From a virus, in the IMG/VR virus record IMGVR_UViG_3300027833_000021, positions 51,065 to 115,064 of that record: DNA of 64,000 nt. One strand, 5' to 3'. Position numbers and translations under genes: made by a program. The notes beneath the pieces were generated by a model that was not told the DNA's origin, ran no database searches, and worked only from the letters and a program-made list of their open reading frames with translations. How positions within the stretch are numbered: position 1 is the first letter of the stretch; each line of letters starts with the position of its first letter. Below, piece by piece: positions 12,876 through 20,870 of the stretch.

Positions 12876-14138
12876 TTGGCAGAAAATAAAGAATTTAAAT
12901 GTTCGTTTTGTGGTAAACCAAAGAACGAAATTAAAACATTAATTGCAGGACCTAATCAATACATTTGTAATGAATGTATTGACTTGTGCCATAATATTAT
13001 ACACGAAGTAAAATCAGATGATATAAACAATCCTGATTATAACCCAGTAGCGGTTACTCCTGAAGAAATCAAAGAGTACTTAGATGAACATGTTATCGGT
13101 CAAGATGAAGCAAAAGAAGTCGTTTCAGTTGCAGTGTATAACCACTATAAACGTATCAATTCTACTGACACAGATATAGAATTAGATAAGTCTAACATCC
13201 TAGTCTTTGGTCCAAGTGGTACTGGTAAAACTTTGATAGGTAAAACTATTGCTAAATTCCTTGATGTGCCATTTGCTCAAATTGATGCTACCTCACTTAC
13301 TGAAAGTGGTTACGTTGGTGAAGACGTAGAGAATGTAGTACAGCGTTTGTTAATTGCATCAGATTTTGATATTGAAAAAGCCGAACGTGGCATTGTTTAC
13401 ATTGATGAAATTGATAAGAAAGCCAAGAAAGGTGAAAACTTATCAATCACAAAAGACGTTTCTGGTGAAGGTGTACAACAAGCACTACTTAAAATCGTTG
13501 AAGGAACAGTTGTTCGTGTCCCACCTGGCGGGGGTCGTAAACATCCAAACCAAGAAATGATTGAAGTAGATACTAGAAAAATCTTATTCATTGTCGGTGG
13601 TGCATTTGTAGGTATAGATAAGATTGTAGAAAATAGAGTTAACACAAGTCCTGGGATTGGTTTTGGTGCATCACACAAGGTAGACACATGTAAGTGTGTA
13701 ACTAGCAGAGAAATTAGAACACAAGACCTTCTTAAGTATGGACTAATTCCAGAATTTATGGGTAGATTTCCAATCGTTGTGGGACTTGAAGACCTGACAG
13801 AAGCAGAATTAGTCAGAATTCTAGTTGAGCCAAAGAACAGTATAGTTGCACAGTTTAAGAAACTATTCTCATTAGATAACGTAGAGTTAGAAATGGGTGA
13901 TGATACATTATCAGCCATAGCCAAAATTGCACATGAAGATACTACAGGTGCAAGAGGACTACGAAGTGTTATAGAGAAATCATTACTCAAGGTGCAGTTT
14001 ACTCTTCCAAAATTGGCAAAAGAAGGACTAGAGAAAGTTATTATTACTAAAGAATTTATTAATGCAGATGTAGATACACCAATCTTAGTATATGCAGAAG
14101 ATGAGTCCAAGGAGACTGAACAAGGCATAGATGGGTAA
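12876..14138 (+). CDS. clpX: ATP-dependent unfoldase ClpX
   Basis: A full-length 420 aa ClpX, started here at TTG 12876 because the zinc domain begins directly after it. The N-terminal zinc ligands are C9, C12, C31 and C34. Walker A is GPSGTGKT (about residue 112), the pore loop is [11 protein letters not shown], and Walker B is IVYIDEIDK. The RKH loop is [10 protein letters not shown], the ClpP-docking loop is GIGFGA, and sensor 2 is GARGLRS. An intact docking loop means it could form hybrid ClpXP with host ClpP; no clpP is in the window. It overlaps infC by 8 nt. Confidence 0.96.
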
Positions 14139-14670
14139 TTATTACAAAAAGACTAGTAAAGTTAATATAATTTCTAATAATCAGATAACATTTGATAAAT
14201 TAAGAGTAATAGATAAAGACAGAGAGCCACTAGGAATAATGGACAAGTCAGAAGCAATAGAACTTGCTTTATCTCAAGGATTAGACTTAGTATTGATTGT
14301 AGAAAAAGCAGACCCTCCAGTTGCTAGAATAATCGAATTAAATAAGTATAAATACGAGATACAAAAGAACGAGAAGGAGATGGCTAAAAAAGCCAGAGCC
14401 TCAAGGATAGATACTAAAGAAGTTAAGTTTAAGCCTAATATAGGCGAACATGATTTACTTATAAAACTAAATCATGCACAAGAGTTTTTAGATAATGGAT
14501 GTAAAGTTAAGATTACTATTCAGATGCGAGGTAGAGAAAACTCAAATAGTTCGGAAGTATTTAAACATTTTAAAAATGCAATTGAAACACATCTAGTCAA
14601 TTTTAGATGGGATTCAAACTTAGCATTAAACGGAAATAGAATAATAGGATTACTATATAAAGATGGCTAA
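14131..14670 (+). CDS. infC: Translation initiation factor IF-3
   Basis: A 179 aa two-domain IF-3. The N-domain has [13 protein letters not shown] and [16 protein letters not shown], then a Lys-rich linker helix (about 73-95). The C-domain has [19 protein letters not shown] and QMRGREN. IF-3 binds the 30S subunit, checks the start codon and initiator tRNA, and keeps subunits apart. The gene overlaps clpX and the bS21 gene, so all three are probably translated together. The signature IF-3 residues are kept, so it is probably functional. Confidence 0.93.
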
Positions 14671-14926
14671 ATTTACACCAAGAAAGGTAAAAACAGGTAG
14701 AGAAAGACCAATAGGAACTCACGTAGAAGTACAACATGATAACTTTGAAAGAGCATTAAGACTTTGGAAAAGAAAATGTTCAGATGCAGGCACAGTACAA
14801 GAAGTTAGAGAACGACAAGCATTCATTAAGCCTACTGAAAAGAAGAAGAAAATGAAAGCGGCAGCCAAGCAACGAACTAGACGTGAACAAGCAAAGAATA
14901 AATTACATAAGAAAAGATTGTATTAA
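14663..14926 (+). CDS. rpsU: Ribosomal protein bS21
   Basis: An 87 aa basic protein with the bS21 pattern: NFERALRLWKRKCSDAG, VQEVRERQAFIKPTEKKK, a Lys/Arg helix and a C-terminal KKRLY. bS21 sits by the anti-Shine-Dalgarno region of the 30S subunit and affects start-site choice. It overlaps infC by 8 nt and touches the next gene at TAATG. A phage bS21 could swap into host ribosomes, which is known as an idea for other marine phages. Confidence 0.93.
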   Translation: MAKFTPRKVKTGRERPIGTHVEVQHDNFERALRLWKRKCSDAGTVQEVRERQAFIKPTEKKKKMKAAAKQRTRREQAKNKLHKKRLY

Positions 14927-15168
14927 TGTCAATTGAAATACTTGAAACACTAGATGTAAGAACTCTACAGAAAGAGTCCGCTAGAGCATTATTAACCATG
15001 GACGGAACAAGTCATGGTATATCACGTTTCAACAAACAAGCACAACATAACTCTCAGAATTGGTACAAAGCAGTGCTAAAAGAGTATATAGAAGAACATG
15101 GAGGCTTACCTTGTGATGTAGGTCCCGCAAAGGATTTAGTGTTATTTTCCGAGAAAATTGGTTTATAA
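14926..15168 (+). CDS. Hypothetical protein, 80 aa
   Basis: No family recognised. It starts on the last base of the bS21 gene, so it is the last gene of the clpX-infC-rpsU unit. It is soluble and slightly charged, with SHGISRFNKQAQHNSQNWYK in the middle and GGLPCDVGPAKDLV near the end. Confidence 0.6.
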   Translation: MSIEILETLDVRTLQKESARALLTMDGTSHGISRFNKQAQHNSQNWYKAVLKEYIEEHGGLPCDVGPAKDLVLFSEKIGL

Positions 15169-15244
15169 AGACTAAATAAGAGTGTACTGAGCAATAGTGT
15201 TTAGTATATTACCGAGATGCCGATAGGGTCTCAAACAATAATAA

Positions 15245-15272
15245 CTTGCTTAATATAAGGAGAAAAATTATG
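15245..15272 (+). promoter_or_regulatory. ROSE-like RNA thermometer hairpin before hsp20
   Basis: CTTGCT (15245-15250), a 7-nt loop and AGGAG (15258-15262) pair with one G left out. This is the layout of the 3' hairpin of ROSE elements, where UUGCU masks the ribosome site of small heat-shock genes. The ATG is at 15270. A GAGA...TCTC stem lies further upstream in the leader (15212-15233). Confidence 0.45.
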
Positions 15273-15698
15273 ACAAGACACGTAACCACACTAACCCTGC
15301 CTGACTTTCACAGAACAATGCTAGGATTTGACCGACTGGTCGAAGACTTTCAAACGTTCAATGCTGGAGCAAACAATGGGTATCCCCCTTTCAACGTAGA
15401 GACTTCTGGTGATGACAAATATCAAATCACACTAGCACTCGCTGGTTTTGTACGAGACGATTTAAAAATCGATGTACAAGAAGGCATTCTTACTATTACA
15501 GGTGAGAAAGTAGAAGTGGAGTCAGAAGAAGTTCAATATCTACATAAAGGTATCGCTAATAGAAGTTTCACAAGAACTTGGAAATTAGCAGAATACGTTG
15601 AGGTAGTAGAAGCCAAGATGGAAAATGGTATGCTTTACATTTCTTTAGAACGCATTGTTCCAGAAGAAAAGAAACCAAAGTCTATCAAAATTAACTAA
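15270..15698 (+). CDS. Small heat-shock protein Hsp20 (IbpA-like)
   Basis: 142 aa from ATG 15270, chosen over the in-frame ATG 15246 because AAGGAG sits 8 nt before it. The N-terminus GFDRLVEDF and YPPFNVETSGDDKYQITLALAGF are IbpA-like. The alpha-crystallin strands follow (LTITGEK, HKGIANRSFTRTWKLA, MLYISLERI), and KPKSIKIN is the final IxI-type tail. It holds unfolded proteins. Hsp20 genes are common in T4-like marine phages and may help capsid assembly. Confidence 0.93.
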   Translation: MTRHVTTLTLPDFHRTMLGFDRLVEDFQTFNAGANNGYPPFNVETSGDDKYQITLALAGFVRDDLKIDVQEGILTITGEKVEVESEEVQYLHKGIANRSFTRTWKLAEYVEVVEAKMENGMLYISLERIVPEEKKPKSIKIN

Positions 15699-15706
15699 AA
15701 AGTTAC

Positions 15707-15735
15707 TTGACTTTAACTACTAATTTAGTTATAAT
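15707..15735 (+). promoter_or_regulatory. sigma70-like promoter TTGACT-17-TATAAT
   Basis: A strong match, but the expected start site (about 15742) falls on the first base of a terminator hairpin, so any transcript would be very short unless termination is overcome. Confidence 0.6.
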
Positions 15736-15740
15736 TAAGG

Positions 15741-15770
15741 GAGACAGACAGAAATGTTTGTCTCTTTTTT
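15741..15770 (+). terminator. Rho-independent terminator with GAAA tetraloop
   Basis: A 10-bp stem GAGACAGACA / TGTTTGTCTC with one G-T pair, loop GAAA and six T. It ends the hsp20 transcript and lies directly after a promoter. Confidence 0.85.
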
Positions 15771-15792
15771 AATAGCCGACACGTGAAATTTG

Positions 15793-15800
15793 CATAAATA
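15793..15800 (+). promoter_or_regulatory. T4-late-like box CATAAATA
   Basis: It lies 25 nt before clpS with GAGGGAGAG as ribosome site between them, a good spacing for a late promoter. Confidence 0.6.
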
Positions 15801-15824
15801 CATAGTATATGAGGGAGAGTATAA

Positions 15825-16142
15825 ATGATTGAAAGTAACGAAAAAGAAAAAGTACAGTCATCTAATAATTCGTTATTAGCAATAGGCGAACCGAAGCAAT
15901 ATTATGTTGTAATGCACAATGATGATAAGACTCCATTCGACTTTGTTATTGATATACTTATGGCGTTGTTTAGCCATGATAAAGATACATCGGCAGACTT
16001 AGCACACAAGATACACGTAGACGAAAAGGCAATTGTAGGAATGTATAACTTAGAAATCGCAGAACAAAAAGTTGAAGAGACTGTAAAGGCAAGCAGAGTT
16101 GCTAACTATCCTCTATCGGTATCTTTAGAACCAACGACTTAA
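15825..16142 (+). CDS. clpS: ClpS, N-degron adaptor for Clp protease
   Basis: A 105 aa ClpS. The core YYVVMHNDDKTPFDFVIDIL contains the NDD-x-T-P-x-x-F segment that binds the N-terminal residue of substrates. MALFSHDKDTSADLAHKIH, AIVGMYNLEIAEQKVEE and a final YPLSVSLE match the rest of the fold. ClpS delivers proteins with destabilising N-terminal residues to ClpA(C)P. The flexible N-terminal tail (about 20 residues), needed to act on ClpA, is present. It has a late-type promoter, unlike the clpX unit. Confidence 0.92.
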   Translation: MIESNEKEKVQSSNNSLLAIGEPKQYYVVMHNDDKTPFDFVIDILMALFSHDKDTSADLAHKIHVDEKAIVGMYNLEIAEQKVEETVKASRVANYPLSVSLEPTT

Positions 16143-18044: not shown

Positions 18045-18073
18045 TTGACATTCCTTGTCAATTCTGTTATTAT
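18045..18073 (+). promoter_or_regulatory. sigma70-like promoter TTGACA-17-TATTAT with inverted repeat at -35
   Basis: TTGACA TTCCT TGTCAA forms a 6-bp inverted repeat covering the -35. It would start a leader of about 215 nt in front of tctC. Confidence 0.6.
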
Positions 18074-18087
18074 GTTCGTACTAATAA

Positions 18088-18095
18088 GATAAATA
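18088..18095 (+). promoter_or_regulatory. T4-late-like box GATAAATA
   Basis: It lies 15 nt after the -10 of the sigma70-like promoter, so tctC could be read both early and late from nearly the same start. Confidence 0.4.
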
Positions 18096-18101
18096 AAAAC
18101 T

Positions 18102-18263
18102 AGTGCAGAGTTGCACTTCCGCATGTATTACAGAGTGTAAGCATGTCTTATCTATTTTCAAATTATAGAATAGGACAATGGTGTTTGCTCTCTAATAGTG
18201 TGCAACAAATCTCCAAAACCCTATTCTAAAATCACTTAAGTAATAAGCCACGCCTACTTAAGT
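18102..18263 (+). ncRNA. Structured leader RNA before tctC, four predicted hairpins
   Basis: Hairpin 1: AGTGCA/TGCACT (18102-18117). Hairpin 2: CATG..TTAC / GTAA.CATG (18122-18145). Stem 3: TAGAATAGG (18166-18174) with CCTATTCTA (18220-18228), enclosing 45 nt with a further TTGC/GCAA pair. Stem 4: ACTTAAGTA/TACTTAAGT, followed by T5. This resembles a riboswitch or attenuator, but no known class was recognised. Confidence 0.5.
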
Positions 18264-18267
18264 TTTT
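18234..18267 (+). terminator. Terminator-like hairpin in the tctC leader
   Basis: A 9-bp AT-rich stem (18234-18242 / 18255-18263), a 12-nt loop and TTTTT, 30 nt before the tctC start. It could work as an attenuator. Confidence 0.5.
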
Positions 18268-18295
18268 ATTAATGTGGTTAACAACGGAGTAAATA

Positions 18296-19351
18296 ATGTT
18301 TAAAAAACTATTAATCTCAGCAGTACTATCAGTAGGTATTGCAACATCAGCCATGGCTGATTACACCCTAATCGTACCACAAGCACCTGGTAAAGGTACT
18401 TCAGTATGGGGTGAAATTATTGCTAAGAACTTAGAAAAGTTTCTAGGTGAACCAGTAGTAGTTCGTCATATTCCAGGCGCACGTGATATTCCTGGATTTA
18501 ACAAGTTCCACGACAGCCTACGTTTTGACGACAAAACAATCATGGTTGCACATGGTGGTAACGGTGTATCATACTTACTAGATAAAGTTAGATATGATTA
18601 TTACGATTATGAATTAATTGGTTCAATGAATAATGATATCGTTCTTGGTAAGCAAGAAGGCAAAGACGAAAAATCAGGCACTTGGACAATTGCAGGTGGT
18701 TCAGGTTTTGAACCAGATGCGGCTGCGGCGGCAATGTTAATTTGTGGCCCACAAGAAAACGGTTCAATCGATGCCTACTTGGCATGTTGGAGAGAACGTG
18801 TTGTATGGGTTAACGGTGTATCAGGCGGTGAAAAGCGTCTAGGTTTCCAAAATGGTGAATTTGATATCGCACGTGAATCACCAGCGGCGTGGAAACGTTT
18901 CTATACAGGTATCGAAGGTAACGAACTATGGTTCACACATGGTATCTTAGATTTAGAAAACAATGTACAAATGGATGACCCTAACTTTCCAAATACACAA
19001 TTTGAAGACGTGTATGAAAGATTATGGGGCGAAGCACCAGCAGGAGATTTATATAACGCATATAAACTTACTCGTAACTGGCGTGATGCAATCCAAAAGT
19101 CACTTTGGATGAACAAAGGTAACCCGAATGCGGCAAAAGTAAAAGCGGCTGTAACTGAAATGATTAATGACCCAGTTGCAAGTGCAGAAATTTATGCTAA
19201 GACAGGTGTTTATCCTTGGATCCAAGACGGTGATAGTCTATTAGCGGCTCTTAAATCTTTGATTACAGAGAAAGCACTAAGAGATGCGGTTAAGTGGAAC
19301 CAAGAAGCATATGGCTTCCCATCAATCTACAAACCTGAACTTTTAGACTAA
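18296..19351 (+). CDS. tctC: Tripartite tricarboxylate transporter substrate-binding protein TctC
   Basis: A 351 aa periplasmic binding protein. A signal peptide of about 21 residues ends AMA-DYTL. The first mature residues, TLIVPQAPGKGTSVWGEIIAKNLEKFL, and PVVVRHIPGARDIPGFN are family features, and the rest covers both lobes. It captures a carboxylate (citrate-like or another) for the TctA permease encoded next. GAGT is a weak ribosome site. Both promoter classes and a structured leader precede it. Confidence 0.92.
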   Translation: MFKKLLISAVLSVGIATSAMADYTLIVPQAPGKGTSVWGEIIAKNLEKFLGEPVVVRHIPGARDIPGFNKFHDSLRFDDKTIMVAHGGNGVSYLLDKVRYDYYDYELIGSMNNDIVLGKQEGKDEKSGTWTIAGGSGFEPDAAAAAMLICGPQENGSIDAYLACWRERVVWVNGVSGGEKRLGFQNGEFDIARESPAAWKRFYTGIEGNELWFTHGILDLENNVQMDDPNFPNTQFEDVYERLWGEAPAGDLYNAYKLTRNWRDAIQKSLWMNKGNPNAAKVKAAVTEMINDPVASAEIYAKTGVYPWIQDGDSLLAALKSLITEKALRDAVKWNQEAYGFPSIYKPELLD

Positions 19352-19361
19352 GGAAAATACT

Positions 19362-20870
19362 ATGGAATATGTTATCTGGGCATTAATTGGCACTTGTTAT
19401 GGAATGCTAGTTGGTATTATACCTATCGCAGGTGTAACTACCGCTCTGATAACTGTCTTTAGTATGGGAGCATACTTTATGGCCGACCCCTATTTGGGGT
19501 TGGTCTTTTTAACTGCAATCGTGGCAAGTTGTGCGAGTGCAGATAGTTATACAAGTATTCTTACTGGTATTCCAGGCGCAAGTACCACTGCGGCATGTGT
19601 TATTGACGGTTATCCTATGGCAAAGAAAGGTCAAGCGGCGAGGGCAATGGGAATTGCTATTGCAGACTCGACATTTAATGGTGTTGTATTTGCGGCACTG
19701 ACTTTCTTTTTACTTCCTTATTACGGGAAGATTATTGTATTATTTGGACGTCCAGAATTTCTGGGCTTTATGACAATGGCACTAGCCTGCGTAGGCTTTG
19801 TTGCAAGTAAAAATGTTTTCTTAAGTATCTGTGCAATCATATTTGGATTAGCAGTAGGTATGGTAGGAGAAGATGTTGTAAGTAATCCTAGATTGACATT
19901 CGGTTGGGAATATTTACAAAATGGAATTGGCATGGTAGTTCTATTATCAGGCTTATTCGGAGTTCCTGAATTATTAGACGGATTTAGAAAGAAATTAAAA
20001 TCAGCGGCACCACCGTTAGAAGGAAATTATTGGACAGGACTGAAACAAGGTTTTGGTGATGTTCGTAAAAACTGGAAAGATATGATACGTGGTGGACTGA
20101 TTGGCTTCGTTACTGGTTTATTGCCAGGTGTAGGCGGAGCAGTAGGCGACTTCTTGGCATACGGTGCCACGAAAGCCGCACACAAAGATAAAGACCAAGA
20201 AGTTCCATTTGGTGAAGGTAATCCTGTTGGGTTACTGGGTTGTGAAGGTGCCAACAACGCACAGAAAGTATCTAGTATGATACCTGCTTGTTTGTTCGGT
20301 ATTCCAGCGGCACCATTTGCGGCTATGGTTATGGCAATCTGTATGTACTTCGGTATGGAGATTGGCACACCTAGTCTACTAGATGATTTACAGTTCACAA
20401 ATAGTTTAGCATTTGGTTATATATTTGGAACTATCGGTGTAGCACTCTTAAGTATATTCTTATATAAATGGATTCTTAAAATATTAGAAGTTCCTTTTTG
20501 GATATATGCTACATTTATTTTAGCAGTGATTGTTTACGCTAATATGCAATACACAGGTGGTTGGGAAGACTTAGCCTTACTGGCTATCTTAAGTGCTATC
20601 GGTGTTGTATGTAAAACATATAATATTAGTAGACCAGCAATTCTAGTTGCGTATGTTGTAGCATTCAAAATTGATGAATACTTTTGGGGCACACTACAGT
20701 TATATGGTTACAAACAATGGAAACCAGGATTTAGTTCTATGGCAGATTTTAGATGGTTTGATTTATTCAACATTTACAATCACCCTATATTCCTTGTATG
20801 TATTATCATTGCTGTGGGTATATTCATAAATAGTCTGGTAAGAAAAGATAAAGGATTGGACTACACATGA
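19362..20870 (+). CDS. tctA: Tripartite tricarboxylate transporter large permease TctA
   Basis: A 502 aa inner-membrane protein with about 12 helices. The family signature GMLVGIIPIAGVTTALIT lies at the N-terminus and ILTGIPGASTTAACVIDGYPMAKKGQAARA in two parts after it. A repeated GLLPGVGGAVGDFLAYG motif about residue 255 marks the second half. It normally works with TctC and the small subunit TctB. No TctB is seen here, so the host subunit may be borrowed or it may work without one. It overlaps the next gene by 4 nt. Confidence 0.93.
   Translation: MEYVIWALIGTCYGMLVGIIPIAGVTTALITVFSMGAYFMADPYLGLVFLTAIVASCASADSYTSILTGIPGASTTAACVIDGYPMAKKGQAARAMGIAIADSTFNGVVFAALTFFLLPYYGKIIVLFGRPEFLGFMTMALACVGFVASKNVFLSICAIIFGLAVGMVGEDVVSNPRLTFGWEYLQNGIGMVVLLSGLFGVPELLDGFRKKLKSAAPPLEGNYWTGLKQGFGDVRKNWKDMIRGGLIGFVTGLLPGVGGAVGDFLAYGATKAAHKDKDQEVPFGEGNPVGLLGCEGANNAQKVSSMIPACLFGIPAAPFAAMVMAICMYFGMEIGTPSLLDDLQFTNSLAFGYIFGTIGVALLSIFLYKWILKILEVPFWIYATFILAVIVYANMQYTGGWEDLALLAILSAIGVVCKTYNISRPAILVAYVVAFKIDEYFWGTLQLYGYKQWKPGFSSMADFRWFDLFNIYNHPIFLVCIIIAVGIFINSLVRKDKGLDYT

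What the first reader, a model, noticed from the sequence alone, without database searches (positions are those of the whole stretch)
18080..18295. Structured leader before tctC looks like a riboswitch or attenuator
About 215 nt from the promoter at 18045 hold four hairpins in order: 18102-18117, 18122-18145, a long 9-bp stem 18166-18174/18220-18228, and a terminator-like 9-bp stem with T5 at 18234-18267 just ahead of tctC. The last stem could switch transcription off. No known riboswitch class was recognised. A carboxylate or infection signal is a natural guess for the ligand.
Basis: partly seen in the sequence, partly recalled or inferred. Interest (0 to 1): 0.75.

Follow-up and report, generated by a model that had tools for sequence, protein, structure and literature searches.

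The report
Structured leader of phage transporter operon
A marine phage carries, in front of a nutrient-uptake operon and directly after a T4-type late promoter, a folded RNA leader whose first two hairpins are kept by evolution and whose remaining part can adopt two competing shapes that could hide or expose the ribosome site; it is a real, undescribed RNA element, but nothing shows that it senses a metabolite or ends transcription.

Summary
The leader is real and structured. The full late leader folds better than all 200 shuffles (z -3.8), and its closest relatives do likewise. Hairpin 1 starts 7 nt after it, about where a T4 late transcript would begin. Hairpins 1 and 2 recur in nine distinct phage leaders, each upstream of tctC- or tctA-type genes; all 11 tested pairs are kept, 5 through changes on both sides. 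No Rfam family matches.

The 'terminator' is not supported: it is weak (-6.9 kcal/mol against -13 to -19 for five terminator-like hairpins of this phage), no better than chance, and absent from the other homologous leader types. Stem 3 is plausible but competes with a longer hairpin that uses hairpin 2's own sequence; the predicted minimum is that longer hairpin with the Shine-Dalgarno site paired. This competition recurs in three diverged leader types, so a translational switch is possible but unproven.

Best reading: a late-mRNA leader with a start-site-anchored tandem hairpin (stability or protein binding), followed in tctC-first phages by a bistable segment that may gate tctC translation. 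A metabolite riboswitch is not excluded but has no positive evidence.

The parts
18045..18073 (+). sigma70-like promoter TTGACA-17-TATTAT, probably early/middle transcription
   Evidence: hexamers kept in L001 although the spacer diverged; a similar promoter lies at the same place in L266, L307, L275 and L303; many similar promoters on the coding strand genome-wide; not visible in L010/L013/L296
18088..18095 (+). T4-type late promoter GATAAATA
   Evidence: ATAAATA is the permutation of its letters most concentrated upstream of ORF starts in this 115-kb phage (23 of 53 copies; next best 11 of 69), G before it in 16 of 24; kept in all nine leaders of alignment A3
18102..18117 (+). hairpin 1, stem 18102-18107/18112-18117, tetraloop GAGU; starts 7 nt after the late promoter, about the expected late transcript start
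   Evidence: 3 of 6 pairs with changes on both sides in nine leaders, 100% paired; P 0.81-0.99
18121..18146 (+). hairpin 2 (arms 1 and 2), outer stem 18121-18126/18141-18146, inner 18128-18132/18136-18140
   Evidence: inner stem: 2 of 5 pairs with changes on both sides in nine leaders, 100% paired; MFE of the nascent RNA up to about 18184
18121..18203 (+). competing long hairpin (arms 1-2 with arm 3), 18121-18155 with 18165-18203
   Evidence: MFE of the late transcript; arm 1-2:arm 3 energy reached by 1, 1, 18 and 3 of 1000 shuffles in window, L001, L010, L013
18166..18228 (+). stem 3 (arm 3 with arm 4), 18166-18174/18220-18228
   Evidence: z -2.75, -3.3, -2.9, -2.8 in window, L001, L010, L013; P 0 in the window's full-length ensemble; limited covariation
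18211..18214 (+). CUCC, possible anti-Shine-Dalgarno
   Evidence: pairs with 18286-18289, P about 0.88 per pair; present in L001
18234..18263 (+). terminator-like AU-rich stem, 9 bp, 12-nt loop, followed by TTTTA
   Evidence: -6.9 kcal/mol; z -0.25 for the segment; absent from L010, L013 and the tctA-first leaders
18286..18289 (+). Shine-Dalgarno GGAG of the tctC-like gene
   Evidence: sequence; predicted paired in the MFE
18296..19351 (+). tctC-like solute-binding protein gene (351 aa); name rests on the adjacent tctA only
   Evidence: no Pfam or NCBIfam family at the thresholds used
19362..20870 (+). tctA, transporter membrane protein
   Evidence: Pfam TctA PF01970, E 3e-87

Best explanation
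This is the 5' untranslated leader of a phage late transcript. Transcription probably starts early from the sigma70-like promoter (18045) and late from GATAAATA (18088), which would put the late 5' end at about 18101-18102, at or next to hairpin 1. Hairpins 1 and 2 form a conserved tandem-hairpin module of phage tct operons; their likely job is to shield the 5' end of an abundant late mRNA from decay, or to bind a phage or host protein. In tctC-first phages the module is followed by a segment that can fold in two ways: (hairpin 2 + stem 3) or (long hairpin + SD paired). The best guess is that this controls access of ribosomes to tctC, not termination of transcription. Shown by computation: the promoter motif, hairpins 1-2 with compensatory changes, competing folds beyond chance. 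Inferred: the exact start site, stabilisation, translational control. Unknown: what, if anything, tips the switch.
For: Late promoter. Hairpins 1-2: 9 distinct leaders, 98 of 98 cells paired, 5 pairs and 15 cells with changes on both sides; percentage paired, changed cells and covariation score reached by 0 of 500 shuffles (the plain count of pairs with double changes by 140 of 500); slid controls 23-47% paired. Module found once per record in 13 records, each time before tct genes (strong matches). Hairpins often begin 3-8 nt after ATAAATA (9 of 17 strong ones); tct late leaders are more structured than other late leaders (mean z -1.95, n=14, against -0.14, n=52; one-sided Mann-Whitney p 1.3e-5, post hoc and not phylogenetically corrected). 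Competing folds; arm 3 is only about 50-58% identical between leader types yet keeps its complementarity. 5'-terminal stem-loops are known to stabilise bacterial mRNA (Emory 1992 and Bouvet 1992, titles as listed in PMC3997798; details from own knowledge).
Against: No transcript end, decay rate or translation was measured. Only three tctC-first leader types carry the bistable part, so it has no formal covariation test. In L010 the MFE is the other state. SD pairing uses different sequences in each type. For L013 the arm 3:arm 4 duplex test as cut was not significant (302 of 1000), although the segment fold was. Hairpin 1 begins 11-15 nt after the promoter in some other tctC leaders (L014, L023, L008). 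A conserved GARY tetraloop is not needed for simple stabilisation.
Confidence: 0.5

Rival explanations
1. The leader is only a 5' stabiliser and spacer: hairpins 1-2 protect the late mRNA, and the rest is passive structure without switching.
For: Hairpins 1-2 suffice in tctA-first phages, whose leaders lack stem 3 and the long hairpin; other late genes of this phage (L245, 14663 and 15130) and an Hsp20-like gene in L010 (named from its translation) also have hairpins near the late start.
Against: Long hairpin and stem 3 are each more stable than shuffles in the three leader types, with diverged sequences.
Confidence: 0.33
2. Hairpins 1-2 are a binding site for a phage or host RNA-binding protein (translational operator or decay regulator). 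This overlaps with the best explanation.
For: Same loop (GAGU, GAAC or GAGC) on changing stems; T4-type phages use such operators, e.g. the gene 43 hairpin with loop UAAC (PMC3014915).
Against: No candidate protein; the site is far from the SD in tctC-first phages; a related hairpin precedes a non-tct ORF.
Confidence: 0.3
3. Metabolite riboswitch for a carboxylate or other substrate of the transporter.
For: Association with tct genes; competing folds.
Against: No Rfam match; hairpins 1-2 show no junction with many conserved bases beyond the loops, and in tctA-first phages there is no expression platform.
Confidence: 0.1
4. Transcription attenuator with an intrinsic terminator at 18234-18267.
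For: Stem followed by T5; the stem survives in L001 through G-U pairs.
Against: Weak (-6.9 kcal/mol), no better than shuffles, absent in other leader types, stem of only two G-C pairs.
Confidence: 0.05
5. T4 gene e-type control: early transcripts carry an extra 5' strand that hides the SD, late transcripts lack it.
For: Tandem sigma70-like and late promoters; the mechanism exists in T4 (PMC3014915).
Against: The predicted SD partner (18211-18214) is downstream of the late start, so it is in both transcripts.
Confidence: 0.05

Closest known systems
5'-terminal stabilising stem-loops of bacterial mRNAs (ompA, papA; Emory, Bouvet and Belasco)
   Same: A hairpin at or next to the predicted 5' end of an mRNA expected to be abundant
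   Different: Here directly after a phage late promoter, in tandem, with a conserved tetraloop; stability not measured
T4 gene e / I-TevI leader control (PMC3014915)
   Same: Late promoter next to RNA structure that can hide the SD
   Different: SD partner lies inside the late transcript, so early and late RNAs do not differ in it
T4/RB69 gene 43 operator hairpin (PMC3014915)
   Same: Small phage hairpin with conserved four-base loop, upstream of a start codon
   Different: Loop GARY instead of UAAC, in front of tct genes, not near the SD; no protein known
Attenuators with 1:2 / 2:3 / 3:4 alternative pairing (trp type; own knowledge)
   Same: Arms 1:2, 2:3 and 3:4 compete
   Different: No convincing terminator and no conserved leader peptide; the output would be SD access

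Membership tests
Known Rfam RNA family | Score above a family's gathering threshold | tested here: not met
   no hit in any leader; only chance-level matches
Intrinsic transcription attenuator | Strong G+C-rich hairpin plus U-run upstream of the gene | tested here: not met
   -6.9 kcal/mol, 2 G-C pairs of 9, 12-nt loop; not listed by the terminator scan, which allows loops only up to 8; z -0.25
Intrinsic transcription attenuator | Terminator conserved among homologues | tested here: not met
   only in window and L001/L036; absent in L010, L013, L266, L296
Riboswitch | Conserved structured aptamer | tested here: inconclusive
   two small covarying hairpins with conserved loops; no larger conserved core
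Riboswitch | Alternative fold that changes SD or terminator state | tested here: inconclusive
   competing folds predicted in three leader types; absent in tctA-first leaders
Riboswitch | Specific small-molecule binding | not testable with these tools
   needs in-line probing or calorimetry
T4-type late transcription unit | TATAAATA-like promoter upstream of genes | tested here: met
T4-type late transcription unit | gp55/gp33-type late transcription factors in the genome | tested here: inconclusive
   none recognised among the proteins scanned against PHROGs; the Gp23 search returned nothing but its controls did not ring either; the record may be incomplete
5'-terminal stabilising stem-loop | Hairpin begins within a few nt of the transcript start | tested here: inconclusive
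   starts 7 nt after GATAAATA; the start site itself is inferred
5'-terminal stabilising stem-loop | Longer mRNA half-life | not testable with these tools
   needs a decay assay
T4 gene e-type early/late hairpin | SD-hiding strand present only in the early transcript | tested here: not met
   SD partner 18211-18214 is downstream of both starts
trp-type attenuator | Conserved, translated leader peptide | tested here: not met
   small frames start in hairpin 2, but peptides differ in length and sequence among leaders; a shared M-Y/F-x-R-V start is explained by the hairpin sequence

The most novel reading that the evidence does not exclude
Phage tct operons carry dedicated leader RNAs of at least two families (tandem GARY hairpins; the AACGCUCC-N4-GAAGUUC hairpin) that sense a small molecule or infection state and gate synthesis of the phage's transporter: a new regulatory RNA class specific to phage-borne nutrient uptake.
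Probability: 0.13. Interest if true: 0.85.

Novelty: new member of a known kind. Interest (0 to 1): 0.55.

Why it matters
Phages that carry nutrient transporters are thought to reshape host metabolism, yet how such genes are timed and dosed during infection is largely unknown. A conserved leader RNA tied to tct operons, with a predicted late start site and a testable two-state fold, gives a concrete handle. The regularity 'late promoter, then hairpin at the start site' could also be a general way for these phages to stabilise selected late mRNAs.

Tried and rejected
Rfam at gathering and relaxed thresholds: nothing credible. Genome-wide tetraloop-hairpin scan (output partly cut): no sign of a genome-wide GARY motif in this phage. 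Leader and tctC in INPHARED phages: no match. tctC in GTDB genomes: one 45% match in a MAG contig, not followed. Terminator reading rejected. Gene-e-type early/late control rejected. Leader-peptide attenuation rejected. The MAFFT alignment of whole leaders (A2) is unreliable across stem 3, so no covariation is claimed from it. The outer CAUG/CAUG pairs of hairpin 2 hardly vary and were left out of the pair count. R1 was built from the nine leaders it then finds, so those scores are by construction. The hp1-hp2 model finds nothing in 44 loci, nearly all of them phages that carry the AACGCUCC hairpin.

Full report
WHAT IS THERE. The window is part of a 115-kb virus record. The tctC-like gene (18296-19351) lies next to a clear tctA (Pfam TctA, E 3e-87); the first gene is named from this neighbourhood only, since no Pfam or NCBIfam family matched it. 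The leader folds better than chance: z -2.9 from an early start, z -3.8 from the predicted late start, with z -4.2, -4.0 and -3.4 for homologues L001, L010 and L013.

TWO PROMOTERS. Besides the sigma70-like promoter at 18045 there is GATAAATA at 18088-18095. In this genome ATAAATA is concentrated 15-70 nt upstream of ORF starts (23 of 53 copies; the next best permutation of the same letters 11 of 69), mostly as GATAAATA. This is the T4 late-promoter type (TATAAATA, PMC3014915). A T4 late transcript starts roughly 6-7 nt downstream (own knowledge), so the late RNA should begin at about 18101-18102, at the foot of hairpin 1. No late transcription factor was recognised among the proteins scanned, so late control is inferred from the motif.

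HAIRPINS 1 AND 2 ARE CONSERVED RNA. Homologous leaders were found before tctC (L001, L010, L013, L025 and near copies) and before tctA in phages with the other gene order (L266, L275, L296, L303, L307). In nine distinct sequences all 11 tested pairs are always kept; 5 pairs change on both sides (15 cells, 0 of 500 shuffles), and slid controls fall to 23-47% paired. Loops are GAGU, GAAC or GAGC (in the window's hairpin 2, GAG). A covariance model finds the double module once per record in 13 records, always before tct genes; weaker single-hairpin relatives precede a 233-aa ORF in L264/L300, tctC in L014 and tctA in L273.

LATE LEADERS OF TCT GENES ARE UNUSUALLY STRUCTURED. Among distinct ATAAATA-preceded leaders, the 44 nt after the promoter fold with mean z -1.95 for 14 tct leaders and -0.14 for 52 others (p 1.3e-5; post hoc, relatedness of phages not corrected). 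Hairpins tend to start 3-8 nt after the motif (9 of 17 strong ones; 17 of 71 promoter sites against 4 of 32 control sites have one). A few other late genes share this, so it is not strictly tct-specific.

THE DOWNSTREAM PART IS BISTABLE. As the RNA grows, hairpin 2 forms first; from about 18192 on, a longer hairpin (18121-18155 with 18165-18203) replaces it, with a narrow return to hairpin 2 + stem 3 when the RNA ends at 18248-18256. In the full RNA the long hairpin is the minimum and GGAG pairs with CUCC 18211-18214; stem 3 has probability 0. The alternative, hairpin 2 plus stem 3, costs 6.5 kcal/mol more in the window, 8 in L001, 4.7 in L013, and is itself the minimum in L010. Both competing segments are more stable than shuffles in nearly all leader types, and arm 3 keeps complementarity to its partners while only about half its letters are shared between types (exception: arm 3:arm 4 in L013 as cut). 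This is an attenuator-like anatomy, but with SD access rather than termination as the likely output. Energy models alone cannot say which state dominates in the cell.

THE TERMINATOR IS NOT ONE. It has 9 mostly A-U pairs, a 12-nt loop and -6.9 kcal/mol; five terminator-like hairpins of the phage have -13.4 to -18.8. Its segment is no better than shuffles, and it is missing from L010, L013 and the tctA-first leaders.

VERDICT. A real, undescribed phage leader RNA. Its conserved core is a tandem hairpin at the presumed start of the late mRNA; a translational switch in tctC-first phages is plausible; a metabolite riboswitch or transcription attenuator is not supported by present evidence.

Noticed in passing
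L009, L018, L002 and about 60 of the 120 hits in L124-L243: A second hairpin, UGUUGU-AACGCUCC-N4-GAAGUUC-ACAACA, with 36 distinct versions, always a 4-nt loop, and double-sided changes in the outer stem. Of 62 hits picked by stem sequence, every one with a readable downstream ORF preceded a tctA- or tctC-type gene.
   Followed up: partly
L002-L005, L031 upstream of tctC; also L176, L191: A short open frame that begins like tctA and ends in a stretch resembling a later part of tctA lies between the hairpin and tctC: a probable tctA remnant with an internal deletion.
   Followed up: no
L007/L035 and L008 leaders: Same loop GUGCAAUAC on different stems (UUAAGU/ACUUAA against CCAAGU/ACUUGG): perhaps a third tct leader hairpin type.
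   Followed up: no
L264:9300-9473 and L300: Late promoter followed by a GAGU-loop hairpin, a second hairpin and a third with loop GAGC/GAGU, before a 233-aa ORF without a PHROG match.
   Followed up: partly
window 18045-18061: The -35 box lies in an inverted repeat TTGACA-N5-TGTCAA, kept in L266, L307 and L275 but broken in L001: possible operator.
   Followed up: no
window 12876-16142: Phage genes resembling ClpX (12876), translation factor IF3 (14131), Hsp20 (15246, Pfam E 2e-19) and ClpS (15825) sit just upstream; apart from Hsp20 these names are from reading the translations.
   Followed up: no
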